From contig CM046341.1 in NCBI GenBank assembly GCA_025403435.1, positions 20,731,460 through 20,795,459 of the forward strand: a DNA stretch of 64,000 nt. Reading direction: 5' to 3'. The notes beneath the pieces were generated by a model. It ran no database searches and was not told where the DNA came from. It worked only from the letters and a program-made list of their open reading frames with translations. This document shows, in pieces, positions 961 through 62,810 of this stretch. Within the stretch, counting starts at the first letter, position 1. Every line of letters starts with the position of its first letter. Both the position numbers and the translations under genes were made by a program. This stretch comes from Artocarpus heterophyllus. Taxonomy: Eukaryota > Streptophyta > Magnoliopsida > Rosales > Moraceae.

Positions 961-965
961 ATCTA
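961..965. repeat. Target site duplication, left copy (atcta)
   Basis: The 5 bp immediately before the LTR terminus TGTGACACCC are repeated at 9175-9179, immediately after the right LTR. Five-bp duplications are usual for LTR-retrotransposon integrases. Confidence 0.93.
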
Positions 966-2941
966 TGTGACACCCGTTATTCTCCTAACGGGTATTGAGG
1001 TAATTAAATTAATTTTTAATGTATAAAAAAAAAATTGCTTCATTTAAATTTATTTTATAATATTTATTTTTATCTATTTTTAAATTTTCTAAAATTCTCC
1101 TATATTTATTTAGTATGATTACTAAAAAGCCTTAGAACTTCTAATAAATCTCAAAAATGTCATATTGGCATTATATGTGTTAAAGTCTTTAGATGAGACA
1201 TAAGGATATCTTTTCCAACTACTCTTGACCCTCATTTTCTTTATTTCCTCCGTGACATGCTTCAACATGTCTCCTCTATAATTGTTTCCATCACTTCTCT
1301 TCAAAGACTTCATCTTTTCTTCCTTTCTCTTCCACGGTTCCCACACTCTTCTTCTCATTTCTTTGCTGAAGCAAAATACTTAGAGAACTTCTTCAAGGCA
1401 GCCATAAAAATCAGCCACCATCACCTCCATTTGAGCAAGAATTTCAGTCATACCGAACTAAAGGAACCTGTTTTGAAGCCATTTCAAGCTTCCAACTAAC
1501 CATAATCCGAGGTTAGAAATCTTATGAACAAATTTAGTCTTTCATTTATAAATTTTCTTTTATACTAAAGGATTATTCAAATTTGCGTTCTTAAACCTAA
1601 GTATATGTTTGTTGCTATTTTGGAGCATATGTATGAAGTCTAAGTGTATATGCCCTAGACAGAAAATTTATATTGTTAAGCTTTATAATACCTCTATGGG
1701 CAGTGGTTATTTCTTGAAATTCTAAGATTAAATTAAAATAAATTTTATGAATGTAGTTGTATGTTGTGCTTTAGTTTTAATTATCCTTATGCACGCCTTA
1801 GGATCAAGGGAGTATGGAGCTAACGTTAATTGATTCCAGGATTAAGAGACTGTTGATAAGCTTAAAAGGTAGGGATTCTATTACTCATCTTTTGTGAGGT
1901 TTTTATAGAATTAAAATTGATTGTTTTGCCGCAACATATATATATCTATGTTGAACTGATATTATATGATTATCACATATGAAACTATGACATGGACTCG
2001 TCTTGTATTGTACGGCGAGGAACATAATGAATTGACACATGTTATAAATTGAGAAGCATGGTTAGGAAAACTAACTCTATTGATAATGATTCAATATAGA
2101 GAAATTGTGAGACATGAAGAGGGCGACGGTTACGTCCTTGGGCATGAATACCCTAAAAGGTAAAGTAGGGGGAAGGCGATGACGCTTCCTTGGGTTGAAA
2201 GTCCCAGAACACACTGTACAGGAATCGATTTGGTGAGGACTCGGGGCTTGATGTCCCCTCACCGGAACACCCTTGGAATGTTTATAGGGTGATCAAGTGC
2301 GCCCATTTGGGTTTCGATGAGTTGAGTGATACTCAATTTAACATGGATACCTAGGAACAATGATGATTGTTAATATTTGTATAAATGTGTAATTATGACA
2401 CTTGGTAATGATTAACTACGGTATCCATAAGATGTGATCATAATAAACCTCATAATCTGGAATATGATGTAACTTATTAACCATGCAGGTTTTAATGTGG
2501 TAATGATAAAAATCTAAAGGTGAGTAATGGCTTTCTCTACTGAGCATAGTGTCGCTCATTCCCTTATGTTTATATCTTTTCAGGACTCACTAAGTGTGAG
2601 GTGGCTACGAGAAATATAGTTGAGGAAGCGATGTAACTATATTACATTGGGACTGCTCAATTGTAAAGAATGTTCTTCATGATAATGTAAGCATCAATTG
2701 TTACTTTCTGTGACTGTAATTATAATGTGTTGAGGGTTAAAATGATGATGACAACAGTTTATATTATTAAATTTAAGGTGCTACATCAAAACTGTGGTTT
2801 ATTTGTCGTTTATATTTTTATTTTTGAGTTGAGAGTTTTCATTTAAGTCCCGGGCAAATTTTATTTTTAAGGTTTTACTTTTATTATTTATTTTTATTTT
2901 ATCTCATTAAAAACTGTTAACCCCCATATAGGGGCGTTACA
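966..2941 (+). repeat. 5' LTR of the LOG-carrying element (1976 bp)
   Basis: Direct repeat of 7201-9174. By eye the two differ by a g/a substitution near 1021 versus 7255, a c/a substitution near 1249 versus 7483, and a 2-bp difference in an AT run near 1935 versus 8166. It starts TGTGACACCC and ends GCGTTACA. Small ORFs inside it occur identically in the other LTR and are not treated as genes. Confidence 0.95.
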
Positions 2942-2948
2942 GAATTTT

Positions 2949-2960
2949 TGGTATCAGAGC
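2949..2960 (+). other. Primer-binding site (tRNA-iMet type)
   Basis: TGGTATCAGAGC, 7 bp after the 5' LTR end, is complementary to the 3' end of plant initiator methionine tRNA, the primer used by most plant LTR retrotransposons. It fixes the plus orientation of the element. Confidence 0.9.
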
Positions 2961-4429
2961 CTAGGTTCGGTTAACCTAGGGAGTGTAGCACCACTTTAAA
3001 AAATATATTTTTGAGATGGTTTTGAAGCTGAATTTTCATTGTCATCATCAAAATGAACCTTCACATTGATTTATACAGTCTAGAAGGATGTAACATGGAA
3101 AGGCCATAGAATGAAAATATCAATAGTTATATGAGTACAATAATTATATAGAAGGAAAGTATTAATAGTTATGAGGGAATGATAATCATATGAAATGAGT
3201 TTATAAGTAGAATGCTTATGAGAGATTCGTATAATATTAGGATCTATAAGCATATTTAATTCGTATAAACGATGAGAAATTCGTATAGATACGAGGATTT
3301 AAGAGCCTTTTATCTCGTGAAAAACAATAAGAAATATAAGGCTTGATTTATTGATTTTAAAGTTTGACATAGATATGCCAAATTTTTCGTAATTGATTCA
3401 AACCTAAGTAATGATTATGTGTGGATTCGATGGAGCACATAAGTGTCAATATCTTTTCTTGAAAGTTCTATTTATTTGAGGAATATGATATAAGTTGGGA
3501 ATCATGGTATTGAATTTTGAGAGAGATAAATGTTAGACTTTTGGTCTGTTGAGACTGTGTAAAGTCTAGAATGCATGAATCTCAAAATTGGAATATTTTG
3601 TTACGTACATTGTATTTAAGTGTATCAGTGAATCTTTTGGTTACCTAAGGTTTTGTTATATGAGGAAATTATATATTGTATGAGTAGAATTGTGGGGATT
3701 GTAGATGTTCTTAAGTAGTAACATCAAGTGTCTTTGTTCGTTGATATGGTCTACGTTGAAAGACGTAAATCGTATTGATTTCAAGGTTAGTCACATTCTA
3801 AACCCTTGGTAGCAATGATGATGAATCCATTGATAGATGTTAAGTATTATGAATAACATATGGGTGTATGTATTGTTCAATAAGGTTTTGATTAAAACAA
3901 AATTATTCGAGTTGCTGGAAGATTATGTTGTTATGAAATGATTTTAAATATCATTCAGGAAGATCCTTGTTGTCGTTAAATTAGATTTGTTGTTCATAAT
4001 TAACTTTATCTATAGTGGGCTTTGAATTGGGTTTAAGATTCATACGAATTGGTTTTCAATTTTATGTTTGTTATTTAACTTGTTCTAAATGTGTTAAGGC
4101 CCGAAACAACCTGACCATTTTCAACTTAGAACATTTGGGCCTAGTTCAAATCTTAAATCAGTTTGATTCACACTGTCTCTCCCACGTGGTCTCTATACGT
4201 GTCATATACAGTGGTTTAATTATTGTTTACATATACGTTTACTGTGCGTATGACCTTATTTCTCCGAGTTCACTTTTTCTCTCTTAATTTGTTATTTTCT
4301 CTCTAAATCGCAAATCCACTTCTTTTTCATTAGAAATTCTTCTTTTTCTCTAAAAGAAGAAGGAATTCTAGGATTCTGCAATTTACTATCTTAATTTTTT
4401 CTTTCTATTTACTCTTCTTTCATCTCATC
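2961..4429 (+). other. Leader/spacer before the first cargo ORF; no coding seen
   Basis: About 1.47 kb of AT-rich DNA between the primer-binding site and the first cargo ORF. No gag or other retroelement domain can be read in any frame. A gag would normally begin here in an autonomous chromovirus. Its last 250 bp look like a plant promoter and leader (see 4182-4429). Confidence 0.7.
4182..4203 (+). promoter_or_regulatory. G-box (CCACGTGG) and adjacent ABRE-like ACGTGTC
   Basis: The palindromic G-box CCACGTGG is at 4182-4189 and ACGTGTC at 4197-4203, about 230-250 bp before the ATG of the first cargo ORF. Paired ACGT-core elements are bound by plant bZIP/bHLH factors and are typical of ABA- or light-responsive promoters. 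A pyrimidine-rich stretch resembling a plant 5' untranslated leader follows at about 4259-4429. I see no convincing TATA box, so an internal promoter is an inference. Confidence 0.45.
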
Positions 4430-4843
4430 ATGGACCCAAAGTACCAACACCTGAGAAAGTATTTCCCATCACTCTCCCAAAAGATTCTTAGAAAGAAATA
4501 CAAGGCTAGAATTACTCGGTTGTGGATTCTTATGCGTTTTGGTATCCCTTGTGATGTGAGAATGTTAATAGAGGGGAAAATCCGTCCGAGTGACTTTAGT
4601 CAAGATGTCGGTTTACCAGGAACAGGTACCAGTCGTAGTGCAATGAAAAGAAGAGCTCGTGCCATCGTGGTCACTTGTAACAAATGTGGAAGACAAAATT
4701 GTAACGGTAAATGTACTTCACCTGGTTATATGTCTACGAATAGAGAGGATAAAATAAGGTTTTGTAGGGATGGACTTTCAAAGGAGAACTTGGATAGCAT
4801 CCATCCTCCTCTCCACGGTCACCCTAGTGGATATGTTCAATGA
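4430..4843 (+). CDS. Unrecognised 137-residue basic protein with a Cys cluster, cargo of the LTR element
   Basis: Open frame from ATG 4430, preceded by a pyrimidine-rich leader, to TGA. I do not recognise the family. The N-terminal half is rich in Lys and Arg, with a very basic stretch at residues 19-31. At residues 83-95 there is a C-x2-C-x4-C-x3-C cluster (CNKCGRQNCNGKC), close in spacing to the CCHC zinc knuckle of retroviral nucleocapsids but with Cys where His is expected. There is no signal peptide or membrane segment. It occupies the place where gag would start, so a shrunken nucleocapsid-like packaging protein is one possibility; a second captured host gene is another. It might also be an upstream exon. 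The intact frame in a young element argues that it is not random. Confidence 0.5.
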   Translation: MDPKYQHLRKYFPSLSQKILRKKYKARITRLWILMRFGIPCDVRMLIEGKIRPSDFSQDVGLPGTGTSRSAMKRRARAIVVTCNKCGRQNCNGKCTSPGYMSTNREDKIRFCRDGLSKENLDSIHPPLHGHPSGYVQ

Positions 4844-5594
4844 GCTATTTTTAAACTCTGGCCTAAATTTTATACAGAAAGACAACGCCTCAGGAATATG
4901 GTATTTCTAGATCCTGTTTGCCAAGCCATAAGAAAACTGGATGGGAAATAAGTCATCGCTCTATAAAGGTTATTTAGTCTTTACTTATTTGAAGCAGTTT
5001 TAGCTGATGTTCAACAGTTTGTGTTTTTCTTTTACTCAGAATATTTGCTTTTGTGTTTGAAATAATTGTGATTATTAGATTGATACAGTAAGTGTTAATA
5101 TCTTATTTAATTTATGATTTTCTTAAATATATATATAATAAAATATATTATCTTATCAGACACGTTACATACGGTACAGTAATATGTTTGAATTTTGAAA
5201 AGCTTATCCAGATATTTCAAGATTTGTGTCTCAAATTTCAAAAGTTCTACAGTATTTGTCGTTTATATTAAATTTCTAGACTTGGTGTATATTTGTCAAA
5301 AAGTCTACAGTTGTGTCATGAGGGTCTTCTGTCAAATTGTTCTCAATTGTCAAAAGTTATACAATTAGAGTCTAATCTTTTTCAAAAAGTGAATCAGATT
5401 TTCTGTAAACTATCAATCACCTTATCTTACTTTCTTATCCGCACAAGATTTTGTTTAAATCTTTGGATTACCTTTTCATTACCTACTCGTCTATCTCTTT
5501 AGCCCTTTTTGTATATTTCTCATCTTTAAAAACTCATGTAGAACCCGAAGTCTAAGTGGAGCAGACATTAAGCAACCACTTCTATAAACCAAAT
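4844..5594 (+). other. Spacer between the two cargo ORFs
   Basis: About 750 bp of AT-rich sequence with stops in every frame. A short open stretch at 5293-5502 has no similarity I recognise. An in-frame stop at 5553-5555 separates the LOG-like frame from anything upstream, so the two cargo ORFs are not fused unless by splicing. Confidence 0.6.
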
Positions 5595-6245
5595 ATGTCT
5601 ACCTCCCAGTCCACGAAGAAAATAAAGAATGTCTGTGTCTTTTGTGGTTCCAGCCTTGGAAAAGATAAAGCTTATTTAGAAGCTGCAAATCACTTAGGGC
5701 AAGTCCTAGCACGCAAGAAGATTAACATAATCTATGGGGGTGGTAGTATAAAAATGATGGTAAATATGGCACTAGCAGCTAGGTCTAGCGACGCTACTGA
5801 TGTAAGAATTTGGCCTCATATTCCAGTTGAAGGAAACCTTTGTAAGGAAGCCATAGGTAAGGGAGAAGGAGTCAGGAGTATCCCTAAAAATTTTAAAGAC
5901 ATAATCTATAATTCCGATGCTTTTATAGCATTACCTGGTGGTCTAGGTACTCTTGAGGAAATATTTATAGTTGCTTGTGGGCAATTGTTGGGCTTTTATT
6001 CCAAACCTTTGGGTCTGCTGAACGTAAAGGGTTTTTATGACGGTCTTTTGAAATTTCTAGATTACGCTGTGGAAGAAAACATCACTACAGAATCGGAGAG
6101 ACAAATCTTTGTTACTGCTTCAACAGCTGAGGAATTGATAGATAAAATGCAAATCATACATCCAGAATCCGACACTGCAACATCCAAGCTTGAATGGGAA
6201 AGGGAAAGCCGGGAGCGGCCAATTGATTTGAATCTCCATCTGTAA
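5595..6245 (+). CDS. LOG-like protein (cytokinin riboside 5'-monophosphate phosphoribohydrolase family), captured cargo
   Basis: 216 residues, the usual length of plant LONELY GUY proteins, which release active cytokinin bases from their riboside monophosphates in the cytosol. The Rossmann-like core is clear: VCVFCGSS at residues 13-20, IIYGGGS at 45-51, SDAFIALPGGLGTLEE at 107-122, KPLGLLNVKGFYDGLL at 137-152. The PGGxGTxxE signature is intact. The QRK segment that supplies the catalytic Arg in LOGs (about 15 residues before PGG) reads PKNFK here, and the GLMG of the nucleotide loop reads KMMV, so enzyme activity is doubtful. The tail DLNLHL resembles the ends of some divergent LOG-like paralogues. 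Host LOG genes have several introns; this copy has none, so it derives from a spliced transcript. I chose ATG 5595, since an in-frame stop lies at 5553-5555 with no ATG between. Confidence 0.88.
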   Translation: MSTSQSTKKIKNVCVFCGSSLGKDKAYLEAANHLGQVLARKKINIIYGGGSIKMMVNMALAARSSDATDVRIWPHIPVEGNLCKEAIGKGEGVRSIPKNFKDIIYNSDAFIALPGGLGTLEEIFIVACGQLLGFYSKPLGLLNVKGFYDGLLKFLDYAVEENITTESERQIFVTASTAEELIDKMQIIHPESDTATSKLEWERESRERPIDLNLHL

Positions 6246-7186
6246 TCTTTTTGTTTTATCTTTGGCATGTAGGCATGTGTGTCCGTATTTCGTGTGTTAC
6301 GAATAACCGTTTGCCTTGTATTCTGTGTTTCTTGTGGTACGTCGTTGTTAAATCTTTTAGATTCATTGAGCCTAATGCCGGGATGGCTGGATACGGAGTA
6401 CTTGATGCTCTCGAAACGCATCCTTCTTAAGGTCCGATATTTTGTTTATCGATGTTTTTGTATCCTATAAGCATGCATGATATGGATAGCTGGTATACGG
6501 AGTGCCTTGTACTCTCGAAACGTATCCGTATCATGTTTGTAATGTGTAATATTCTGTTAATATTATGTGGAAGTACCAGAGTCAGTTATGGGGATATTCC
6601 ATATGAAATATGAGTATATTATTTGGGTTGAATGTTTGTGTCATGGGGATAGCTGTTTAATGAAAAATATGTCGGGTTTGTCTGCAACTCTGAGATTCCG
6701 TTTAATATCTCTATGAATAAGTTTAATGTATGGTTTTGAATATAAGTGTTTGTGATATATGTTTTATGATTATGTTTTAGTTTATTAGTTGAGGTATGAA
6801 ATCAAATATATTTGACTTTTCCTTACTCAAAAAGGAAAAGGAACCTAAAGATGAAGTATATAAAATTTCTCTGGCAATCTCCTTAAATGTGATTGTAAAT
6901 CACAGTCCATGGACAATGAAGGACCGGAATCATGATATGGTCAATATGTATGCCTGATCAGATTCTTAGACTATTATACGGTGTTATAAGTTGAAACTTG
7001 TCAGAAATACTCTTATTGAGGGATTTAGGAGTAAGATTTATTATGCAAGTAAATAAGTGGAAATACGATAACTTAAATTTGGAGGACAAACAACATTAAC
7101 GGTTTAGACTCAGAATTGGAATCATAGTGGAATCATAATTTTTACTAGTATTGCTAGAATTGAAATTTCGAGGACGAAATTTCTTT
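6246..7186 (+). other. 3' part of the internal region; repeated stem-forming motif
   Basis: No protein is recognisable. A roughly 40-bp motif occurs twice, at 6385-6423 and 6488-6527: each has GGATACGGAGT or TATACGGAGT, a short spacer, then CTCTCGAAACG and ATCC, so each can fold as an imperfect hairpin. The region ends in the chromovirus-type sequence before the polypurine tract. Confidence 0.6.
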
Positions 7187-7200
7187 AAGGGGGGTAGAGC
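7187..7200 (+). other. Polypurine tract of the LOG-carrying element
   Basis: aaggggggtagagc lies directly against the 3' LTR and is preceded by gaggacgaaattt, the arrangement seen in plant Tekay/Del chromoviruses. It primes plus-strand DNA synthesis. Confidence 0.85.
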
Positions 7201-9174
7201 TGTGACACCCGTTATTCTCCTAACGGGTATTGAGGTAATTAAATTAATTTTTAATATATAAAAAAAAAATTGCTTCATTTAAATTTATTTTATAATATTT
7301 ATTTTTATCTATTTTTAAATTTTCTAAAATTCTCCTATATTTATTTAGTATGATTACTAAAAAGCCTTAGAACTTCTAATAAATCTCAAAAATGTCATAT
7401 TGGCATTATATGTGTTAAAGTCTTTAGATGAGACATAAGGATATCTTTTCCAACTACTCTTGACCCTCATTTTCTTTATTTACTCCGTGACATGCTTCAA
7501 CATGTCTCCTCTATAATTGTTTCCATCACTTCTCTTCAAAGACTTCATCTTTTCTTCCTTTCTCTTCCACGGTTCCCACACTCTTCTTCTCATTTCTTTG
7601 CTGAAGCAAAATACTTAGAGAACTTCTTCAAGGCAGCCATAAAAATCAGCCACCATCACCTCCATTTGAGCAAGAATTTCAGTCATACCGAACTAAAGGA
7701 ACCTGTTTTGAAGCCATTTCAAGCTTCCAACTAACCATAATCCGAGGTTAGAAATCTTATGAACAAATTTAGTCTTTCATTTATAAATTTTCTTTTATAC
7801 TAAAGGATTATTCAAATTTGCGTTCTTAAACCTAAGTATATGTTTGTTGCTATTTTGGAGCATATGTATGAAGTCTAAGTGTATATGCCCTAGACAGAAA
7901 ATTTATATTGTTAAGCTTTATAATACCTCTATGGGCAGTGGTTATTTCTTGAAATTCTAAGATTAAATTAAAATAAATTTTATGAATGTAGTTGTATGTT
8001 GTGCTTTAGTTTTAATTATCCTTATGCACGCCTTAGGATCAAGGGAGTATGGAGCTAACGTTAATTGATTCCAGGATTAAGAGACTGTTGATAAGCTTAA
8101 AAGGTAGGGATTCTATTACTCATCTTTTGTGAGGTTTTTATAGAATTAAAATTGATTGTTTTGCCGCAATATATATATCTATGTTGAACTGATATTATAT
8201 GATTATCACATATGAAACTATGACATGGACTCGTCTTGTATTGTACGGCGAGGAACATAATGAATTGACACATGTTATAAATTGAGAAGCATGGTTAGGA
8301 AAACTAACTCTATTGATAATGATTCAATATAGAGAAATTGTGAGACATGAAGAGGGCGACGGTTACGTCCTTGGGCATGAATACCCTAAAAGGTAAAGTA
8401 GGGGGAAGGCGATGACGCTTCCTTGGGTTGAAAGTCCCAGAACACACTGTACAGGAATCGATTTGGTGAGGACTCGGGGCTTGATGTCCCCTCACCGGAA
8501 CACCCTTGGAATGTTTATAGGGTGATCAAGTGCGCCCATTTGGGTTTCGATGAGTTGAGTGATACTCAATTTAACATGGATACCTAGGAACAATGATGAT
8601 TGTTAATATTTGTATAAATGTGTAATTATGACACTTGGTAATGATTAACTACGGTATCCATAAGATGTGATCATAATAAACCTCATAATCTGGAATATGA
8701 TGTAACTTATTAACCATGCAGGTTTTAATGTGGTAATGATAAAAATCTAAAGGTGAGTAATGGCTTTCTCTACTGAGCATAGTGTCGCTCATTCCCTTAT
8801 GTTTATATCTTTTCAGGACTCACTAAGTGTGAGGTGGCTACGAGAAATATAGTTGAGGAAGCGATGTAACTATATTACATTGGGACTGCTCAATTGTAAA
8901 GAATGTTCTTCATGATAATGTAAGCATCAATTGTTACTTTCTGTGACTGTAATTATAATGTGTTGAGGGTTAAAATGATGATGACAACAGTTTATATTAT
9001 TAAATTTAAGGTGCTACATCAAAACTGTGGTTTATTTGTCGTTTATATTTTTATTTTTGAGTTGAGAGTTTTCATTTAAGTCCCGGGCAAATTTTATTTT
9101 TAAGGTTTTACTTTTATTATTTATTTTTATTTTATCTCATTAAAAACTGTTAACCCCCATATAGGGGCGTTACA
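7201..9174 (+). repeat. 3' LTR of the LOG-carrying element (1974 bp)
   Basis: Near-identical direct repeat of 966-2941, with two substitutions and a 2-bp length difference seen by eye. It is followed directly by the right copy of the target duplication at 9175-9179. Confidence 0.95.
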
Positions 9175-9179
9175 ATCTA
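9175..9179. repeat. Target site duplication, right copy (atcta)
   Basis: Matches 961-965. The Copia A reading frame resumes right after it, confirming that the element was inserted into Copia A. Confidence 0.93.
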
Positions 9180-29306: not shown

Positions 29307-29485
29307 TAGACGTTCAAGCTCTCTCTGGTCGTTTTGGGGTTTTGGAGAGGGAGTTACTTCGCTGACATTTTCTCGCTCTCTCTCTCCTTTCTCTCTCTAG
29401 CTCAATCACAGGGCTCTTTTCGTCGTTTCCTTCGCTTCTTCTTCTGTTTTTAGTAGAAGCCAAGAAGAGGCAAAAGAGCAGCAAA

Positions 29486-32400
29486 ATGGCGACCCTTATT
29501 CCTCCACCGCCAGCCACTGAATCGATGAGCAAAAGGGATGAGAAAGTCGATTACTTTAATCTTCCTTGCCCCATTCCCTACGAAGAGATCCATCGCGAAG
29601 CACTCAGTCAGTTTCTTCTTCTCGTTTATCTTTTTTTTTTCTTCTTTGTTGTTGTTGCTGTTGTTGGTGTTTTGCTTTTGTTGTTTTGTTTTTGTTTTTG
29701 TTTTTGTTTTTTTTTTTTTTTGCTTTCTTGCTTTTGAGACCATTTGCTGCTTCTCTATTTTTTCTTTTGGCGAAGAAATAATGATCTTAAGCCCTTGTAA
29801 TTATGATATTTGTTTATATCTATGTATATTTTGGTGTGACAGAGTTTTTGCAAATAGACAGGTTTTGTTTTGATTGGGGGAATTTAAAATAAAAGGATAT
29901 TTTTTATGGAGTTTTACACTATAGAAAGGTTGTTGTTGTTGTATTTTTTTTTTCTCCAGTAGTAGTAAAATACGAAGAGGACGATCACTTTGTTGCCCTA
30001 ATTCTGTGTTTGTGTGGATATGAACAGCGTCAAAGGGATGGTTAAATTAGGCTGTGTTTGGTAAGAGGGAAAGGAATAGGAAGGGAAGAAATGGGGGAAA
30101 ATTGTGAGGAAGGGATACTTTTTTCTAATTCTTCTATATTAAAAGCATTAAAATTGAGGGGATTTGAAATCCTACCCCTAATTTATCCCGTTTTGTTTTT
30201 CCTCCTACAAAACATAGTCCCAAAATCGTTTTACTAATTTTCTCACTAATATCCCTCTTACCAAACAAGCTCTTTGAATGAAAAGGAGTAGAATTGCTAA
30301 GGATGTAATAAGTGTTTATTTATTTATTTTCTATTTTCTGGTAGTAGCAAAGACCAAAGAGGATGATGAGTCTGTGGTACTAAATCTCGTGTTTGTGTGT
30401 GAAATTGAACAGTGTCTTTAAAGCCAGAACTTTTTGAAGGGATGCGCTTTGATTTTACCAAAGGACTGAACCAGAAGTTCTCACTCAGTCACAGGTCATC
30501 ATATTGAGCTTTCCTCCGCATGTGTTTTGATGGAATTTGTTTAGTTTTGAAGTACTACTGATGATGGTTATATTTTGTTAAACCCAAAATTAGTGTTTTC
30601 ATGGGGCCTACAGAGATTCCTTCCCAGTCTTCTGAAACTATCAAAATCCCAACTGCTCACTATGAGTTTGGGGCTAATTTTATTGACCCAAAGGTAACTT
30701 ATTCTATTATTTTGGTTACTCTTTTTGGGCTTTTTTTCGTAAGAGTTCATTTGTATTGCCTGGTGAGAATCGTTTTCGCTTATCATGCAGTTGATGCTTT
30801 TTGGAAGAGTATTAACCGATGGGAGGTTAAATGCAAGAGTGAAGTGTGATTTGACTGAAAATCTTATCCTGAAGGCCAATGCACAGGTACTAGATGTCAT
30901 TGTATTTCTGATGGTGAAAATTTTTACGTCTAAGATAGTTGACTAACTTTTCTTTTTGGCTTTTCCAGCTCACAAATGAGCCTCATATGTCGCATGGCAT
31001 GGTCAATTTTGATTACCAGGTCAGAGCTCTTACCATGAACCATCTCTGTATTTCCTATTGTTATTTCTTATGAAAGATAGAGCAAGAGGTTGACCTATTT
31101 CTACTGCAAATTCTACAAGTTTGTAACTCAGTTTCTATGATTGTGTAAAAGGTGCAGGGTAACAAAGGGAAATATGTTGGCTGAAATGTCATGTGATTTT
31201 TTCATACACATATAAGTTTTTTTTTTTTTTAAAGCTCTCTACAGAAACTTGTAGAAATTTGAAGGATTGTTTGCCCATAATCTCTCCTAGACTTTTGAGA
31301 GGGGTGAGAAGTTTTATTTTGAGTTGTTTTGTAACTTTTGTTATTGTTTCAACGAGCCCTTCTCTTTTGTTATTTGATAGATTGTTACCCGACCCATGTA
31401 TCACATGATCAATATTTCCCACTTCTCTTAAGCTGTTTCCCCATCTTAAGGGCTAAGAAATCACGTTTTTTTCTTATTGATTTTCCCTTTCAATTGATCT
31501 TTGGTAGGACGGTAGTGCTTAAAAAAGACAGGCAATTATAATTAATTAGTCACAATGAATCATCTCAAAACATTTGGGCTGTGAACACAGAATCACTCAT
31601 ATAAGCAAATATTTGGACGAAGAGAATGGGTTGTTTGCAACAATTAAACAGTTCATGAGGATGATTGCTGCAGTTGGAAGTCCATGGGTGTATTTGACCC
31701 TACAAAATTCTAAAGGGAGGGTATTTATAATGATCTGAAATATGAAAGTAAACAATGAAATGAGGCTCAACTATTGTGTTTGAGTGGGTATCTTCTCTCT
31801 GACAAACAACTTCCCACGACCAGCTCCAGCAAAAGTAGTTCTCTTACCTTGGTTCCTTGCATTCGTCAACTGTGCCGTCGGCTGGTGCTTGATTAAGGGA
31901 ACTATTCAAGTCTAGCTTTTTCTGCTACGTTTTGGGATGTTTGATGTAGATGCTAGGTGGGGACGATTTTTAGTTTGAATCCATTCTCAGCGGGACTTGT
32001 CTTAAAAAAAAGGTCTTTTGTTAGCTTTATTTGTTACTTGACTTCTGGTACCGTTCCTAATTCTATTTTATTTTCTTTTGTACAGGGCAGAGACTTCAGG
32101 TCACAGTTTCAATTAGGAAATGGTGCATTATTTGGGGCTAGTTACATTCAGGTTAGCTCTCTGCTTAACTCATGCTCTATCAATAGCGTGGATTGTCTAA
32201 ACAGTCTCATTGTAGTTACAGTGGCATTCCTGGTGCTGTTGCACAATTTATCTTTTTTTTCTTCAATTCAAAGAATTTTTTGACTGAGTTTTTCTGCCAT
32301 GAGGTCAAGTTTGACTTTTTTATTTAGTAAGATAAATTTTATTTATAGCAATACAAGAACAACAATGAGGGGAAAAAAATAAAGGAGGATGCTAAAGTAT

Positions 32401-39421: not shown

Positions 39422-42400
39422 TGTAACTCCCCTCTTACAGACGTCACAATAATCATTACTTTCATCCTTGTTATCATCATTTATAAGATAAACTATTTAA
39501 ATTTCAACTTGATAAACATATCCCAAGGATCCATGCAAAATTATTTTTTAAAAAATATTCTAAATATTTTAAATCCCTTTTTTTTTCCAATGCCAAATTA
39601 ACAAAACCATAATTCAAATAAAATTTCAAAACAAACTTTAAAATCTGTTTAAACAGTTTAGTAGATCGAAACTTTAGCAAAATCAAAATAAATGTAAAAC
39701 AAGTCTTTTTACTTGATAACGCGAAAATTTAAGCATTCAAAGAAATAAAAACAGCGTTCAAAAAAATATTCTTCCTTGGCATTCTTCCGATTCTAATCCA
39801 TCGTTCACAGTTCACATGCTCATCCTCGCCCTCCACTTATTCCAAGGTCTCTTACCTTTATCTGCAACATGATTATAAACTAAGTAAGTAAAAGCTTAGT
39901 AAGTACGCTTTCCTATCTCACAACATAAAACATTTCATGAACACCTTTATGAAACATCATAGTCATAATCATCATTAACACAATAGTGCACTTGGCACAG
40001 TTTCATATATAACATATCTTTCATTATCATTATTCATATTAAAAACTTCATTCATTTTATGTTTGAGGGCCCAAGTGTTGCACCATAAACATCATCATCG
40101 TAGGCGCGCCATTATGAGAGGAGAGGGGTAGCTAATCCCAAACCAAACATGACAAGTCCAACCTTTGGGACATCATAACATAAACATAAACATAGGGTGT
40201 GCAACACTTAATTAAGTGATACATATATATTGATATACTTTTAACATACCTCATCATTGAAACATTCGTTAAACTTTCTTGTTGCAACAAGAGTTTTCAT
40301 GAGAAAACAACATACAAAAACAAACTTAAAAATTATCATAAAACATGTTCTAAAAACTTTTTCGTAAACTTTTATCTTGTTGCAGGTGAGAATGTAGTTA
40401 CTTGTCTTGCTTGCTTACTAAACCTTAACTTGGGTGACGTTGCTGCAGTCCTTGGTGTGCTCGTCTTTTGAAGTGTTCATGTCAAACATTCATATTGACC
40501 ATAAGTCACTAGCAATACTATTAGCAATATATAAATATCTCATACTATCATTAAACATCACCTTATCATGTAATAGTATCAAGAAGCACAAAATCACAAT
40601 TTATGAACCAAGGGTATTCCCAAAAGTAGGCAGAATGACCTTTATTCACTTAAAAATTCATAATAATTTCATCTAAACTCCAAATCAATGAAAACTAGTG
40701 GCATTATAAACTAGACTCAAAAACAAAGAATTGATATACTACACACATATTTTGACAATAAATTGCATGAAGAAAATGTCCTCAAAATTCAATCTAAATT
40801 TCGGGTCTGTGTAAAACTATACAGCTTTCAAGGTAAAATTCGAAAAATCATAACTATTTAATGAAAACTTCGATTCAAGCGATTCAAAAGCCAAACGAAA
40901 GCTTAAGATGTCCAGTATTTGGGAAAAATATAAGAAAAATATAAGCCGCAAACACAGAATAGAAAATTACTGAAGCACGATAGCTATCATGTGTTTATAT
41001 GAAAAGTAAGCATAAGGCATAAAAAAAACTCAATACCAATTAATAAGCCAATAAAACCTCAATTAAAATTGTAAACACATAATTAACATGATACTAATTG
41101 ATAATAAAATAAAACAATAAAGATCTACATAACAAAAATATAAAAATCTATGATATCTCTAATTTATGGTTTATTGAGAAGTTAATCAAAACAAGTAAAT
41201 CATCAACTCTTTACAATCATCGATTGATATAAAATACATACAATAAAAGAATCTTTGTGATGATAATAATAATTCTAATACTAAGTAGAATACACGAAAA
41301 CTATAACATATCTAAAAATTAGCTTCAAATAAATTTTCAACAATTCATAACATGCATTAGAATTCATAGACCAAACAAACTCTAATTACCTAAATCAGTG
41401 AGCAACACACGATCACAAAATTCCAATAATTAAAATAAAATTACTTTAACCCTAAATTTTTTATGAAAACCTAATAACATATATATACAGTACCACAAAA
41501 AGTTCTCATTAGCAAATAAATTTGTTTAGCTATACAAATAGGTCACAAAAACAAGAAGTACTGAATTCACTGAATAGACAGCCACAAAAACCTATCTTAA
41601 AGAAAATTCAAGAACTCATAAAATATCCATTAAGTAACCACCAAATTTTTCAGATCATAACTTAACATATGCATGAATATCTTTGTAAAATTTCGTTCAA
41701 ATCAAAGGTCGTTTGCCCCTTAAACATGGACTATACTTTTGTGCAAAATACCGATTAGCAACAGTTTGGTCATGAGTGGCAGAGAATAAAAATTTAATAT
41801 CACAGCATAGAAAATTCCAAATAAAGTGAAATTTTGAGAAATATCACATAACACATATATAAACATCATACTAAAATTTTAGAGCAAACGGAAATTCATA
41901 GACAAGTTATGGGGGTCGGATTATAAAGCAAACAAAAATTCAACAATAGTGTAGAATGAGTTTCTTACCTTCAAAACGATTCTTTGCAATTCCCTTGAAT
42001 TTATCTAAGTGAAAACTCAATTATTTTATTCAATTGTTTGCAGAAAAATAAGGGAGAGAATGCAAAAAAACGTGGAGAAGAAGGAGAAAGTGTCTAAGAA
42101 TTTTTTTTTTTTTGAGAGAGAGAATTTTCTTTGGCTAAAAATTAAGAGAATGGAAGCTTTGGTGGCTTAGAGGTATATTTTTAGGTTTATGAGAGAGAAG
42201 AGATTAGATGAGTATAGAAAACTCTAATCCTAATCTAATTCAATTTCCTCCCCCCCTTTTTTTTCCTTTTCTTTTTTTTTTCTTTCTTTTCTTTTTTTTT
42301 TCTTTTCTTTTCTCACGGCAATCTGTCGTTTTTCACATATAACATAATATATAATATACATATATAATATAATATAAACATTAATATTATAAAAATAAAA

Positions 42401-42701
42401 AAATATGCAACAACATTCATGTCATCATAAAAAAATTAACTTTAGGCATACATAACCGTAGAATATTATAAAGATTATGAATTTAGAGCAAGTTGGAACA
42501 AAAAAAAAAAAAATAAAATTTTAAGCTTATCATTACTTTTGACATGAACATCTCGAGCACATCGATCCCATGAGGTCGTCACCTGCGACATTTCTAAATA
42601 AAAAATTAATTTACTAAACATAAATAATTATAGCACTAAAGTATCATATTCTAACGTTAAATTAACATAAGTGTCCATAGAAGAAAACGGCTGGCGTTAC
42701 A
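39422..42701 (-). repeat. Left (3') LTR of element G, 3280 bp
   Basis: Aligns with 47257-49982 but is about 550 bp longer. The segment at about 39900-40385 is absent from the right LTR, and the stretch at about 42096-42355, containing a CTTTT-rich run, differs from the right LTR, which has an ATAAT run instead. Confidence 0.92.
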
Positions 42702-42737
42702 ACTCTCCCCACCTTATAAGAGTTTTATCCTCAAAAC

Positions 42738-45700
42738 TCAAAACAATTGTCGATACTTGGCCCTCATATCATCCTCACGTTCCCATGTGGCTTCTTCTAC
42801 TTGGTGATTTCGCCACAAAACTTTAACCAAGGGAATTTCTTTATTCCTTAAGATTTTAGCTTTTCGATATAAAATGTCGACCGGCTTCTCTTCATAGCTG
42901 AGATCCTCTCTTATCTCAATCACCTGTGGTTTGATCACGTGTGTAGGGTCCGGGACATACTTTTTAAGCATCGAGACATGAAACACATCATGGATAGATG
43001 ACATTTCCGATGGCAAACTCAACTGATAAGCCACCTTGCCTATCCGCTTCACAATTTCATAAGGTCCGACAAACCTCAGGCTCAGGTTGCCTTTCTTCCT
43101 AAGCCTCATGACTCCCTTCATTGGTGCAACTTTTAAGAAGACAGAATCGCCTACAACGAATTCCAAGGGCCTTTTCCTTTTATCGGCATAACTTTTTAGT
43201 TGACTTTGAGCAGTCTCGATTCTTTTACGTATCAACTTCTACATGCTTTTGTAAAAATTGAAAGTGAATCTACAATCACTGATCAAAGAGGATAGACTTA
43301 GGAATTCCATGAAGCCTCACTATCTCCTTGACATAAAGTTCCGCTAATCGCTCCATAGAGTAGCTGATCTTAATGGGATGAAGTATGCCGTCTTTGTCAA
43401 TCTATCAATAACAACCCAAATGGCATCATATCCATTCATAGTTCTTGGCAAACCTATGATGAAATCCATCACAATCTCCTCCCACTTCGACTCAGGTATC
43501 TGAATTGTCTACAAATTGCCACCAGGTCTTTGGTGTTTAGCTTTAACTTGCTGACAAGTCAAACATTTCTTACATACTTAGCAACATGACGCTTCATTCC
43601 AAACCACCAAAAGCAATCCCTCAAATCATTGTACATCTTTGTTACACCCGGATGGATTGAATAAGGAGTATTATAGATTTCTGCTAAGATCCTTTCCCTT
43701 AAACCATCAACATTAGGAACACATAAGCAGTTCTTAAGATATAGAGATTCCATCATCAACAACTCGAAACTCCTCACATCTCCCTTCCTTGATTTCCTGC
43801 TTGATCCTTGCTAGACTTGTACCTTTATCTTGTTTGCCTTGAATCTCATCAGATAATGATGGAGCAAGAGTCAATGCTAAAAGCTGTCTCGATATAAGTT
43901 TCAAACCAAAGTCTAGAATTTCTTTCCTTAAAGACCGGGACATCGCTTGTAATGACATCAGTGTTACAACAGTCTTCCTACTCAGAGCATCAGCCACCCG
44001 ATTCGCCTTTCCTGGATGGTACAAGATTTCACAATCATAATCTTTCACTAATTCCAACAATCTCCGTTGCCTCATGTTCAAGTCCTTCTGAGTGAAAAAG
44101 TACTTTAAACTTTAATGGTCGGTGTAGATCTTACATTGAACTCCGTACAAGTAATGTCTCTAAATCCTTCAATGAAAAAACTACGGCTGCCAACTCGAGG
44201 TCATGAGTAGGGTGATTCTTCTTGTAATCCTTTAGTTGTCTCGAGGCATAAGCAATCACCCTATCATTTTGTGTCAACACTGCACCTAGGCCCATTTTAG
44301 AAGCATCACTATAAATGACAAATCCTTCACTCCCTTCCAGAATAGCCAAAATTGGAGCTATCGTCAACCTTGTTTTTAATTCTTGGAAGCTCTTTTCACA
44401 CTCATCATTCCATTCAAACTTCTTCCCTTTGCAAATTAGATTCGTGAGAGGCGATGCTATCTTGGAGAAATCCTCCACAAACTTCCAACAATAACCAGCT
44501 AATCCCAAGAAGCTTCTTATCTCACTTACATTCTTAGGTTACTTCTAGTTAAGAACAGCCTCAACCTTAGTAGGATCAACCATTATTCCATCCTTTGATA
44601 CAACATGCCCTAAGAAAGACACACAGTCGAGCCAGAACTCACACTTAGAGAACTTTGCGTATAACTTGTGTCTCTTCAAGGTCTCTTAAATAATCCTCTG
44701 GTGCTTAGCATGCTCTTCCTGACTCTTTGAATAAACAAGAATATCATCAAGAAATACTATGACAAATTTATCAAGGTAATCCTTGAACACCTAATTCATC
44801 AAGTCCATAAAAGCTACAGGTGCATTCGTTAGATCGAAAGGCATAACCATGGATTTATAGTGACCATACCTCGATCTAAAGGCTGTCTTAGGGATGTCTC
44901 CTTCTTTTATCTTCAACTGGTGATACCCCGACCGCAAATCAATCTTTGAGAAAATAGATGCACCCTTAAGTTGATCAAACAACTCATCAATTTGAGGCAA
45001 CGGGTATTTGTTCTTGATCATCACCTTATTTAGCTCTCTATAGTCGATGCAGAGCCTCATAGAACCATCCTTCTTATTCACAAACAAAACTGGTGCTCCC
45101 CATGGTGAGTGACTAGGTCGGATGAAACCCTTATCAAGAAGTTCCTTTAGTTGGGAGTGCAACTCTCTCAATTTCACTGGAGCCATTCTACACGGTGTCT
45201 TGGAAATCGGATCAGTGCCAGGAGCAAGCTTGATCTCAAATTTGATTTCTCTATCTGGAGGTAAGCTTGGCAGGTCTTCTAGAAATACCTCTGGGAATTC
45301 TTGAACTACTGAAACATCTTCAATCTTTGTCTTTTCTTCTCAACTTTTATCTACAATGTTTGCCAAATAACCTATACAGCCACTTGCTAACAACTTTCTT
45401 GCCTTCAAAGCTGACAAAAACATGTTTGGCTTCTTTCTTGACTCACCCACAAACACGAATCTTTCTTCGCCTTCCAGATGGAAAATCACTTTTCATTTTC
45501 GGCACTCGATAGAAGTATTATACTTACTCAAGAAGTCCATCCTAAGAATCATATCATAGTCACACATATCGATTATAATAAGATTGACAAAAAGTTCTCT
45601 TTCAGAAATCCATAAAGGAACTGTATGCAAATAATGCGTAGACATAATCATTTCCCCAGAGAGCAGTGTCGTAGTGAACCCCTGTCTCATAGGCTCTTGA

Positions 45701-47028
45701 TGTTCTTTTAACTTCATAGCAAACGAACAGGATATAAATGAATGCGTAGCACCCGTGTCAAAAAGAGCATGTGTATTAAAAGAAAGTATTGAGATCTGAC
45801 CTGTGACAACATTGGAAGTTTCATCTACCACTTGTTCCTTCGTCATTGCATAAATGCGAGCATTGGTAGGTGGAGCTTCAAGTCTTCCCTGGCTTATGAG
45901 TGGTCCCTCCAAGGTAGCTTGCATATGGTGAAGTTGAGCATAAGGGGCTCTTTGCTGACCTTGAGCATTGAACTGGGTAGGGCAGTTCCTGGAAAAATGA
46001 CCCTCACGTCTGCAAATGAAACATTGGTTTGTTCCACGATGGCATTCACCCGGATGCTTCTTTCTACAATTGGCACATGGTTGCATCTGCCTATTATTGT
46101 TGTTGTACTACCCACTATTTTGCTTCTTATTACCTTGGTCCTACTAGTTCTGAAAGTTACTCTTCCTCTTGTTGTTTCTCCTAGTTCTGGCTATTGTTAT
46201 TGTTGTTTCTACCCTGAGGTCGATTCTGGCAGTTTGCATTATTCACTGGTTGACTTGATTAAGGCTAGTTTCTTCTTAGCTTTGACAGGTGGAATTCAGC
46301 TCGTTGCGCTCTCAAGACAACCTATTCTTGGTTTTTGGGTGGACTGGCCCCATCAACAATTGCTACAATCTTTAGCCTGAGGACTCTGATCAATCTTTGA
46401 CCCTTTCACTATCATCACTAACCATCCTGGGCAAAGTCGTGCCAATTGGTCGAATTTAGCCACCTTATCGGTAACTGACATTCTCCTTGGTGTAGGTTCT
46501 CGAACTCACCGTAATGCTTCTGGGTAATGTTCACGTGGAAGAACTTTGTGTTGAATTCATGAACAAAGCCTGCCCATGTCATCTCGTCTATGTTCCTGCT
46601 TTGTTCGATTCCATCCCACCAGATTCTGGCCTCCATGGTGAGGCAGTAAGAAGCATAGAGAACTTTCTCATTATCAGTGAAACCCATAAGCTTCAAAATG
46701 GCTTCAATTGTCTTCAACCATCCTTGAGCGACTAGAGGATCCTTAGAACCTTTAAAGTCTACTGGCTTAACTCTCTTCCATCTGACTAATAATAGTTGTT
46801 GATAAGCGGGTCTTAGTTCTAGAACAGGAGCTAGGACTTCTTCTCTTCAAGGCTGAGGATGAGGAGGTGGTGGCATGTCATTACCTGGTCTTTCACCACC
46901 TTGACCATTAGCTCATTGTTCCTTAATCACTCTTCTTTGCTCTTCGAGTTGCCTTTGCAGTTGGTAATCGTCGTCATCATTCTTTCATTGGTTTGAGCAC
47001 AAGTTTGAATTCTTCTACGACCGTTCAT
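42738..47028 (-). pseudogene. Element G gag-pol: gag, protease, RT, RNase H, integrase remnant, chromodomain
   Basis: Minus-strand order from a start at about 47028: gag (46418-46717, including WWDGIEQSR and EFNTKFF); zinc knuckle CFICRREGHFSRNC at 45982-46023; protease DTGATHSF at about 45740-45759; RT 44500-45190, with [22 protein letters not shown] and the active site FLDD at about 44750-44762; RNase H 44131-44508 ([13 protein letters not shown]); integrase zinc-binding part 43559-43777; chromodomain C-terminus 42738-43235 (GPYEIVKRIGKVAYQL, VLWRNHQVEEATWE). Stops and frame changes separate the blocks. The integrase catalytic core is mostly missing: at about 43255 sequence around the second Asp region jumps to the segment before the GPY/F module. 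Confidence 0.9.
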
Positions 47029-47240
47029 CTTTGATTTCCTAAAAGAATTAGGAGCTTAGAGACAATCTTTCAATTTATGAGATAGGATTTCACTACTAAA
47101 TTATGTACTAAGGCACTCATCATCATATGTCTAAATCTTACACTTATCGTTAAACTTACATCAACATTAAATTAACTAAAACATACTTACTTGGAGGACT
47201 TGAACTGACGTGTGGCAATGTGAGTTGGAAACAGAAACCC

Positions 47241-47252
47241 GCTCTGATACCA
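47241..47252 (-). other. Primer-binding site of element G
   Basis: gctctgatacca, complement of TGGTATCAGAGC (initiator Met tRNA), four bases from the 5' LTR end at 47257. Confidence 0.88.
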
Positions 47253-47256
47253 TATA

Positions 47257-58202: not shown

Positions 58203-58442
58203 TAACATCATAGGCTAACCGTCATGAGAGGAGTAGGGTAGCTAGTCCTAAACATGACAAGTCCAAACCTTGTGGGACATCATAAACATGAATATAGGGT
58301 GCGTAATGCTTACTTAAGTGAGATATACACATATAAGCTTTCTTTGAAAGCTTGTCATAAACCATAAAAACATAAACAAAAAAATCCTTAGGATAATTCA
58401 TCATAAAAGGTCTTAAAATAAGAATATTACATCGCAAACCTT
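58203..58442 (-). repeat. Fragment similar to the element G LTR
   Basis: The stretch from gagaggagtagggtagctag to about 58330 resembles 40115-40240 of the G left LTR (gaggggtagctaatcccaa, aacatgacaagtccaa, gggacatcataa). It is a remnant of a related chromovirus LTR between Copia F and Copia D. Confidence 0.65.
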
Positions 58443-62187: not shown

Positions 62188-62810
62188 ATGTCTAAAAATG
62201 CTTTATTTTTGATACTCGATAAAAACCAATTAACCAGTGAGAATTACAATGATTGGAAAAGGAACCTGAATATCGTTCTAGCCTTTGAGAAACTAAAATT
62301 TATGCTGACAACACCGTGCCCTCCCGAACCTACCAAGGAATCCACCAATGAGCAAATCCAAGCATATGATCGCTGGAAAGATGCTAATTATCAGATCTGG
62401 TGTTATGTTATGGCTGGTATGAGTAACATATTGCAGGCTCAATATGAAGATTATAAGACTACAAAGTAGATCTTGGATAATCTTGAAGACATGTTTGGAG
62501 GCCAAGCCATAACAAAACGGCAAGGGCGTTTTGGAAACTTTCAAACTACAAACAAAAACCAGGGTTATCTATGAAGGAACGTATGATGTTAGTCGTGGGT
62601 TACCTCGCTGAGGCTCAATTCCATAGAGCTAATATCGATGCTGAGTCGCAGATGACTATGGTCTTTTAGACTCTGTCAAAGGAGTTCATCCTGTTTAGAG
62701 CTTTATATAATTTGAGCAATAGACAGGATGTCACCTTAATTGAACTGATGAAACAGTTATAAGAGTTCAAAAATCTGATCAAGAAAACTCCTGTGGTTGG
62801 CGAGGTGGCA
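62188..62810 (+). pseudogene. Copia D gag, truncated
   Basis: MSKNALFLILDKNQLTSENY at the start, then DWKRNLNIVLAFEKLKF and TTPCPPEPT, the same gag as elements A and C. A TAG at 62467-62469 and a frameshift near 62525 break it. It still follows the family through MTMVF and LMKQL and ends near KTPVVGEVA. At the codon where A and C carry TAG, D has CAG (Gln). Confidence 0.88.

What the first reader, a model, noticed from the sequence alone, without database searches (positions are those of the whole stretch)
966..9174. LTR retrotransposon that has replaced gag-pol with a captured LONELY GUY-like gene
The element has all cis-acting parts (two LTRs, iMet primer-binding site, polypurine tract, 5-bp target duplication) but no retroelement protein. 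Instead it carries an intronless LOG-like ORF in the sense orientation plus a second ORF. LOG enzymes make active cytokinin, so a mobile family spreading a LOG paralogue could affect host hormone signalling or be a neutral passenger. The lack of introns points to capture of a spliced mRNA, not DNA transduplication. I know of no described family of this kind, but cannot search.
Basis: partly seen in the sequence, partly recalled or inferred. Interest (0 to 1): 0.88.

Follow-up and report, generated by a model that had tools for sequence, protein, structure and literature searches.

The report
Retrotransposon carrying virus-like suppressor and LOG
A young plant jumping element, whose end sequence occurs about 2,700 times in its host genome, carries none of the genes for its own copying but two conserved genes, one resembling a plant-virus silencing suppressor and one resembling a cytokinin-activating enzyme without a residue likely needed for activity, which together would likely help it evade or manipulate its host.

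Summary
In detail: window 966-9174 is an intact 8.2-kb LTR retrotransposon without gag-pol, inserted in a copia element (TSD ATCTA; empty-site paralogues). It is no one-off: the 985-Mb host assembly holds 2,687 exact LTR/PBS junctions; of 96 compared, 86 have the LOG motif at about the window spacing. Both ORFs show purifying selection. The second ORF is a cysteine-rich protein (CRP) whose relatives match viral CRP families (Carla_C4, Viral_NABP). CRP and LOG form a conserved pair, also in Citrus and Orobanche gene models. In the same genome the pair also sits in an Athila-like element with a different LTR and PBS, whereas the window element has Tekay-chromovirus-like ends; a gag-pol-bearing Tekay relative shares its junction. 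So the cargo is most likely an old portable cassette, not a fresh mRNA capture. This LOG lacks the Arg kept in 112 of 120 listed homologues, yet ends in LxLxL (EAR consensus; 87 of 120). LOG domains in Citrus and Populus Gypsy elements are in print; my searches listed no report of the CRP partner or the tail. Function is inferred, not tested.

The parts
961..965 (.). target site duplication, left copy (ATCTA)
   Evidence: uninterrupted in two paralogous copia copies in the window
966..2941 (+). 5' LTR, 1976 bp, TGTGACACCC...GCGTTACA
2949..2960 (+). primer-binding site TGGTATCAGAGC (iMet type, recalled)
   Evidence: the exact 31-nt LTR/PBS junction occurs 2,687 times in the genome
4430..4843 (+). 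CRP ORF, 137 aa in this copy: KRRAR basic stretch (residues 73-77), CNKCGRQNCNGKC zinc-finger-like motif (residues 83-95)
4844..4951 (+). continuation of the CRP frame after an in-frame stop; coding in relatives such as P0001
5595..6245 (+). LOG-like ORF, 216 aa, intronless
6228..6242 (+). C-terminal LNLHL (LxLxL, EAR-like) of the LOG-like protein
7187..7199 (+). polypurine tract, chromovirus-like 3' end
7201..9174 (+). 3' LTR, 1974 bp
9175..9179 (.). target site duplication, right copy (ATCTA)

Best explanation
This is a recently amplified non-autonomous LTR retrotransposon with Tekay-chromovirus-like ends that carries, in place of gag-pol, a conserved two-gene cassette (a viral-type cysteine-rich protein and a LOG-fold protein ending in LxLxL), likely mobilised in trans by gag-pol-bearing Tekay relatives, with the cassette likely acting on the host and not on reverse transcription. 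Shown by calls: structure, abundance, absence of recognisable gag-pol, pairing of the two ORFs in several plants and in two LTR families with unrelated LTRs in this genome, dN/dS well below 1 for both, and loss of the conserved LOG Arg with retention of LxLxL. Inferred: the CRP suppresses RNA silencing and/or acts as a nuclear factor, as CRPs of carlaviruses do; the LOG-like protein binds TOPLESS-type corepressors through its EAR-like tail (or alters cytokinin pools where the enzyme site is kept) and so changes host transcription where the element is expressed; the element gains by weaker silencing; and the cassette came from Athila-like elements by recombination.
For: LTR/TSD/PBS. 150 of 150 scored genome matches are printed as 100% identical to the 216-aa LOG protein without stops (6120 first-look candidates, only the best 150 scored). 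2,687 exact junctions, control 0; 3,238 LOG motifs at <=3 mismatches, control 0; 86 of 96 compared junctions paired with LOG, a lower bound because the LOG list shows lowest-mismatch places first. 7 of 7 sister copies fetched align along the internal 4.26 kb, with small indels and no room for gag-pol, followed by the 3' LTR. dN/dS against L081: LOG 0.27, CRP 0.13. pN/pS within the family, each ORF in loci picked by the other: LOG 0.43 (19 of 20 loci), CRP 0.30 (29 of 29). CRP relatives: PF01623 in 21 of 25 and PF05515 in 18 of 25 aligned members at E <= 0.01. CRP+LOG gene models in Orobanche and Citrus. Athila-like host element L082/L080/L083. Integrase followed by CRP in L001. Tekay relative with the same junction. 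LxLxL tail 87 of 120.
Against: No expression, silencing, TOPLESS-binding or enzyme data. The window CRP alone is below the Pfam cut-offs, as is L080's; the AlphaFold model of P0132 is poor (mean pLDDT 64.8) and no BFVD match reaches E 0.001. The window copy's CRP has an in-frame stop. L080's LOG ends CDLSL, not LxLxL. 33 of 120 listed LOG homologues lack LxLxL in the last 12 residues, not all of them truncated, and on a 43-row tree the tail needs 8 gains or losses. The pN/pS loci are top-scoring, hence young, copies; among LOG singletons nonsynonymous changes (109) outnumber synonymous (69), a per-site ratio of about 0.45. The PPT region of L001, a non-Tekay element by recall, also resembles the window PPT (6 of 2000 shuffles), so PPT likeness alone is weak. 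The Athila label rests on recalled hallmarks.
Confidence: 0.6

Rival explanations
1. Passenger cargo: the two ORFs ride along, and their conservation only reflects recent amplification from few source copies or selection in older autonomous ancestors.
For: Elements are very young: 2 substitutions between the window LTRs and 1 substitution in 5655 aligned LTR bases over 7 copies (copies chosen as LOG-identical, so biased to young). The window CRP is already cut by a stop.
Against: dN/dS 0.13 (CRP) and 0.27 (LOG) between the window family and L081, which differs by about 24-27% in DNA; pN/pS 0.30-0.43 inside the family; a neutral simulation leaves the LOG frame open in 2 of 200 runs at 46% identity, 4 at 60%, 7 at 68% and 23 at 80%.
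Confidence: 0.2
2. Active cytokinin enzyme: the LOG-like protein releases active cytokinin and the element benefits from proliferation of the cells it lives in.
For: LOG fold; 112 of 120 listed homologues keep the Arg of the MHxRKxxM motif; L081 keeps it.
Against: The window family has Asn at that place and a changed GGGSxGLMG loop, so for this family the reading is weak.
Confidence: 0.12
3. Direct capture: this element family itself picked up a spliced host LOG mRNA, and CRP separately.
For: Intronless ORF in sense orientation.
Against: The CRP-LOG order is shared with L080 and L081 and with Citrus and Orobanche gene models; the window LOG is 62.5% identical to L081's and 38-48% to the 24 other LOGs aligned. 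Host LOG genes of this genome were not examined.
Confidence: 0.05

Closest known systems
LOG (YgdH) domain in Gypsy consensus sequences of Citrus sinensis, C. clementina and Populus trichocarpa (Alvarado-Marchena et al. 2022, PMC9289625; sections 12 and 17 and search passages read)
   Same: LOG-fold domain as extra coding sequence of Ty3/gypsy elements
   Different: Those consensuses were built around a reverse transcriptase; the parts read mention no CRP partner, EAR tail, gag-pol-less family or catalytic loss
Extra ORFs of plant Ty3/gypsy elements (Steinbauerova et al. 2011; not held, abstract recalled: two Athila-like elements similar to LOGL4)
   Same: Athila-like elements with LOG-like 3' ORFs
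   Different: Not read here; by recall no viral-type CRP was identified
Carlavirus/allexivirus-type cysteine-rich proteins (Pfam PF01623 Carla_C4, PF05515 Viral_NABP)
   Same: Basic stretch and Cys cluster; profile matches in most family members aligned
   Different: Encoded in LTR retrotransposons and paired with LOG; profile matches cover only about residues 33-124 of proteins of about 175-185 aa
LARD-type non-autonomous LTR retrotransposons (recalled)
   Same: Long LTRs, PBS, PPT, no gag-pol, presumably mobilised in trans
   Different: LARDs are by recall non-coding; this family keeps two selected ORFs
Sunflower Tekay 5' additional ORF proteins (PMC11728184; abstract and passages read)
   Same: Tekay elements with an extra ORF with a nuclear signal; role in silencing modulation suggested by those authors
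   Different: Described there in gag-pol-bearing Tekay elements; I tested no sequence relation to CRP or LOG

Membership tests
LTR retrotransposon | two near-identical LTRs, PBS, PPT and TSD | tested here: met
Tekay chromovirus (cis kinship) | LTR ends, PBS junction and 3' end like a gag-pol-bearing Tekay | tested here: met
   0 of 2000 mononucleotide shuffles reach the match to the window's chromovirus at either end; L092/L087/L093 has the same exact junction, LTR stretches 68-89% identical, and gag, PR, RT, RH and integrase sequence; the window chromovirus's chromodomain is PF00385 E 0.0013, below its cut-off. Lineage name by recall
Tekay chromovirus (autonomous member) | gag-pol with chromodomain | tested here: not met
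   no gag-pol recognised in the internal 4.26 kb
LONELY GUY (type-I LOG fold) | Lysine_decarbox/LOG fold with PGGxGTxEE | tested here: met
LONELY GUY (active enzyme) | Arg of MHxRKxxM (catalytic by recall) | tested here: not met
   Asn in the window family; activity itself not testable here
EAR-motif repressor proteins | LxLxL consensus (recalled) | tested here: met
   IDLNLHL at the C-terminus; 87 of 120 listed homologues (window's own included), against 1 of 120 elsewhere in the same proteins and 1 of 112 tails of CRP hits under 220 aa
EAR-motif repressor proteins | TOPLESS binding and repression | not testable with these tools
   needs a binding assay
Carlavirus/allexivirus CRP | profile match above the curated cut-off | tested here: inconclusive
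   window copy below cut-off; of nine relatives scanned, P0132, P0138, P0134, P0124 and P0216 pass both cut-offs, P0175 and P0182 one, P0128 and P0166 none
Carlavirus/allexivirus CRP | RNA-silencing suppression | not testable with these tools
   needs an assay
Athila (source of cassette) | Athila-type gag/PBS next to CRP-LOG in the same genome | tested here: inconclusive
   L082/L080/L083: PBS TGGCGCCGTTGC, gag PF03732, protease PF13650, CRP, LOG; lineage label by recalled hallmarks, no RT to place in a tree

The most novel reading that the evidence does not exclude
A retrotransposon family that has given up every replication gene and lives as a counter-defence specialist: its thousands of copies encode only a virus-type silencing suppressor and a LOG pseudoenzyme turned into a TOPLESS-recruiting factor, while Tekay relatives supply Gag-Pol. 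The two-gene set is a portable anti-host island that jumps between retrotransposon lineages, and plant RNA viruses and retrotransposons share this suppressor by gene exchange.
Probability: 0.35. Interest if true: 0.92.

Novelty: new variant of a known kind. Interest (0 to 1): 0.76.

Why it matters
Non-autonomous elements are expected to lose coding sequence because they are copied in trans. Here a family with 2,687 exact end junctions (about 2% of the assembly if each marks a full element) keeps two ORFs under purifying selection and no replication gene. That makes it testable whether retrotransposons carry their own anti-silencing and hormone/corepressor effectors. It also links betaflexivirus-type CRPs to retroelements, and offers a natural LOG fold that seems to have traded catalysis for a corepressor tail.

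Tried and rejected
Gag-pol remnant hidden in the internal region: 10 of the 12 other frames of 58 aa or more scanned, no Pfam hits (the two left out are minus-strand frames of 59 and 58 aa); tblastn with peptides of the window chromovirus region gave only weak matches.

CRP as a different protein: NCBIfam and PDB hits to an oxidoreductase at E 0.0014 and 0.08 were set aside as chance, since the homologue family hits Viral_NABP and Carla_C4 instead.

IMG/VR scans for either ORF: none, none, then 14 loci for LOG (L002-L015, 25-62% identity in the best segment), not studied further. Plasmids: none. Rfam on the window: none.

Rejected numbers: one search failed in the script; one search aligned minus-strand loci without turning them, so its substitution counts are not used. 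In one search the '0 of 16' LOGs without the tail is no control, because I picked those 16 from the tail-less ones. One search's column conservation used 21 relatives chosen for having the tail, so it only describes them. The LOG tree used 43 of 120 rows after thinning at 85% identity; the CRP tree 36 rows.

Not reached: host species name, host LOG genes, a random sample of copies, an intact autonomous partner. L092/L087/L093 is a relative with gag-pol split over several frames, not a proven partner.
Full report
What is there. Window 966-9174 is an LTR retrotransposon inserted in a copia element whose pol lies on the minus strand on both sides. The LTRs (966-2941, 7201-9174) differ by 2 substitutions and a 2-bp indel; at recalled rates of 1.3e-8 or 6.5e-9 per site and year this is about 39,000 or 78,000 years (arithmetic). 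The 5-bp duplication ATCTA is single in two paralogous copia copies inside the same window. The PBS is TGGTATCAGAGC at 2949-2960. The element's LTR/PBS junction and 3' end both align with the chromovirus remnant at 42.7-50.0 kb of the window (0 of 2000 shuffles reach either score); that remnant has RT, protease, integrase C-terminal sequence and a sub-threshold chromodomain. The PPT region of the unrelated L001 also resembles the window's (6 of 2000), so the PPT alone does not fix the lineage.

The internal 4,259 bp hold two ORFs with homologues and nothing recognisable of gag-pol (10 of 12 other frames of 58 aa or more scanned). LOG-like ORF 5595-6245: PF03641 9e-22, TIGR00730 5.8e-38, PDB 2a33; AlphaFold model pTM 0.72, best Foldseek match 2a33, TM 0.70/0.86, with the last 18 residues of low confidence. 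The other ORF, 4430-4843, was unidentified. Alone it is below Pfam cut-offs (PF05515 E 0.0061, PF01623 E 0.06). A profile search with it and its three closest relatives found 175 proteins at E <= 10, of which the best 120 are listed. Of 25 aligned members 21 match PF01623 and 18 match PF05515 at E <= 0.01; of nine relatives scanned singly, P0132, P0138, P0134, P0124 and P0216 pass both curated cut-offs, P0175 and P0182 one, P0128 and P0166 none. 99 of 120 have the C-x2-C-x4-C-x2-4-C pattern and 103 a basic stretch. The predicted structure of P0132 is poor (pLDDT 64.8) and no BFVD match reaches E 0.001 (best 0.014), but 11 of the first 13 of 29 matches are proteins of betaflexiviruses, several named RNA silencing suppressor (family membership of those viruses is recalled). 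Carlavirus CRPs are described as silencing suppressors, and the chrysanthemum virus B one also as a transcription factor, in PMC12172455 (passages read).

The pair is conserved. Six of the 120 listed CRP proteins also carry a LOG-family Pfam domain (P0147, P0164, P0186, P0216 from Orobanche; P0166, P0191 from Citrus; P0216 and P0166 re-scanned, P0166 below the cut-offs). These look like two neighbouring ORFs merged by gene prediction (inference). CRP is also listed in Hibiscus, Xanthoceras, Acer and Striga; LOG homologues in Populus, Xanthoceras, Reevesia and Diplodiscus among others. L001, a 3.3-kb probably plant contig filed under a bacterial MAG, has an integrase ORF (PF00665, PF17921) directly followed by an intact CRP ORF, with no LOG found in the 1 kb after it, so CRP also travels with a pol-bearing gypsy element.

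Host genome. The window is part of a 985,004,640-base assembly. All 150 scored LOG matches, out of 6120 first-look candidates, are printed as 100% identical to the window protein without stops; only the best 150 are scored, so this is a lower bound and favours intact copies. The exact 31-base LTR/PBS junction occurs 2,687 times (1312 + 1375; control 0) and a 31-base LOG motif with up to 3 mismatches 3,238 times (control 0). I compared the 96 junctions (of 100 listed) and 97 LOG places (of 100 listed) on contigs C1-C2 that cover the same stretch: 86 of 96 junctions have the LOG motif 2.5-3.6 kb downstream, at a median of 2983.5 bp (window 2983). The LOG list shows lowest-mismatch places first, so 86 is a lower bound. 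Times 8.2 kb the junctions would make about 22 Mb, 2.2% of the assembly, if each marks a full element. Seven of seven sister copies fetched align with the internal 4.26 kb along its length, with small indels, and with the 3' LTR, at 97-99% identity (only part of each 5' LTR was in the stretch, and some 3' LTRs hold an insertion or run out of it). Where I saw both ends (3 of 7) the 5-bp duplications are perfect (GCACG, ATTAT, TTATA).

Selection. To avoid scoring each ORF in loci chosen by that same ORF, I used CRP-chosen loci for LOG and the reverse. LOG: 19 of 20 loci complete (one without LOG), 80 synonymous and 120 nonsynonymous differences, pN/pS 0.43, per copy 0.30 (2 copies with a nonsense change, 1 with an indel). 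CRP codons 1-137: 29 of 29 loci, 16 and 18 differences, pN/pS 0.30, per copy 0.09 (1 nonsense, 1 indel). These loci are top-scoring and therefore young. Against the diverged relative L081: dN/dS LOG 0.27, CRP 0.13; against L080: LOG 0.28, CRP synonymous sites saturated. The in-frame stop in the window CRP is shared by 2 of 29 LOG-chosen and 0 of 20 CRP-chosen loci. The window copy is therefore slightly damaged while the sampled family is not.

What the LOG protein has lost and kept. The Arg of MHxRKxxM is kept in 112 of 120 listed homologues (4 Lys, 2 Gln, 1 Pro; the 1 Asn is the window's own entry); the window also has a changed GGGSxGLMG loop. The diverged relative L081 keeps both, so the loss postdates their split. 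Two Orobanche models (P0147, P0164) also read Asn at that place by eye (sequences). The C-terminus IDLNLHL fits LxLxL, the EAR consensus (recalled). 87 of 120 listed homologues, the window's own included, have LxLxL in the last 12 residues, against 1 of 120 elsewhere in the same proteins and 1 of 112 tails of CRP hits under 220 aa. On a 43-row tree the tail needs 8 changes (3 of 500 shuffles as low), and a seven-row clade with Ensete and Xanthoceras LOGs has none. L080 ends CDLSL, without the first Leu.

Where the cassette comes from. In this genome L082/L080/L083 form another LTR element: a direct repeat of 91% identity over 1.2 kb, PBS TGGCGCCGTTGC, gag (PF03732), protease (PF13650), then CRP and LOG, with no RT or integrase ORF in the stretch. 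Its LTR does not match the window LTR. The PBS and gag-protease sequence are Athila hallmarks by recall. Of the 10 junctions without a listed LOG motif I fetched 8: five are members of the same family (L084, L086, L088, L090, and L089 with the LOG part deleted), L085 runs into masked or gap bases, L091 is unresolved, and L087 is a gypsy element with gag, protease and RT. Fetching its flanks showed LTR stretches 68-89% identical to the window LTR, RNase H and integrase sequence aligning to the window chromovirus, and the 3' end GAGGACAAAATT...GAGAGCTGTAACACC. So the window family has Tekay-type ends and a cassette otherwise seen here with an Athila-like element. Transfer by recombination or template switching is my inference; independent gain by both lineages is not excluded.

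Known and new. PMC9289625 (sections 12 and 17 and passages read) reports the LOG (YgdH) domain in Gypsy consensuses of two Citrus species and Populus. I recall, but could not read, a 2011 survey naming two Athila-like elements with LOGL4 similarity (not held). Searches showed, in titles and abstract starts, no paper that joins a viral CRP with a retrotransposon or reports this EAR tail; (retrotransposon, Betaflexiviridae, cysteine-rich) gave 2 papers, neither on the subject by title. Lists were capped and only open-licence papers are held, so absence there is weak. I rate it a new variant of a known kind: LTR retrotransposons with extra ORFs.

Mechanism. Most likely chain: LTR transcription in the host; translation of CRP and LOG-like protein from the element's RNA (how the second ORF is translated is unknown); CRP weakens RNA silencing or acts in the nucleus; the LOG-like protein recruits corepressors through its tail; gag-pol proteins of Tekay relatives package and integrate the RNA. 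Structure, abundance and selection are shown; each functional step is inferred.

Noticed in passing
window 42701-49982 (-): Chromovirus remnant with gag-pol split over several frames, sub-threshold chromodomain and LTR copies (39434-42701 against 47268-49982, 88-92% identical).
   Followed up: partly
window 1-28833 and 58442-62805: Several related copia copies, nested and on both strands, mostly 77-95% alike.
   Followed up: partly
window about 29366-29600 (+): Open frame containing [39 protein letters not shown], which by recall looks like the first exon of a mitochondrial import receptor TOM40 gene; not tested.
   Followed up: no
window 59504-59887: Two tandem copies of a 191-bp unit, 97% matches.
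   Followed up: no
L001 (DAIEQH010000041.1): Plant-like gypsy DNA filed in a 'Candidatus Nomurabacteria' MAG: probable contamination. A CRP fragment (P0235) is likewise filed under Clostridioides difficile.
   Followed up: partly
L080 C4:19349300-19353300; L081 C17:24138900-24144400: Other CRP-LOG families in the same genome; one search suggests several LOG subfamilies (46-57% identical to P0053).
   Followed up: partly
window 6381-6423 and 6484-6527: Imperfect 44-nt repeat (82%) with a TACGGAGT core in the 3' untranslated part of the element.
   Followed up: no
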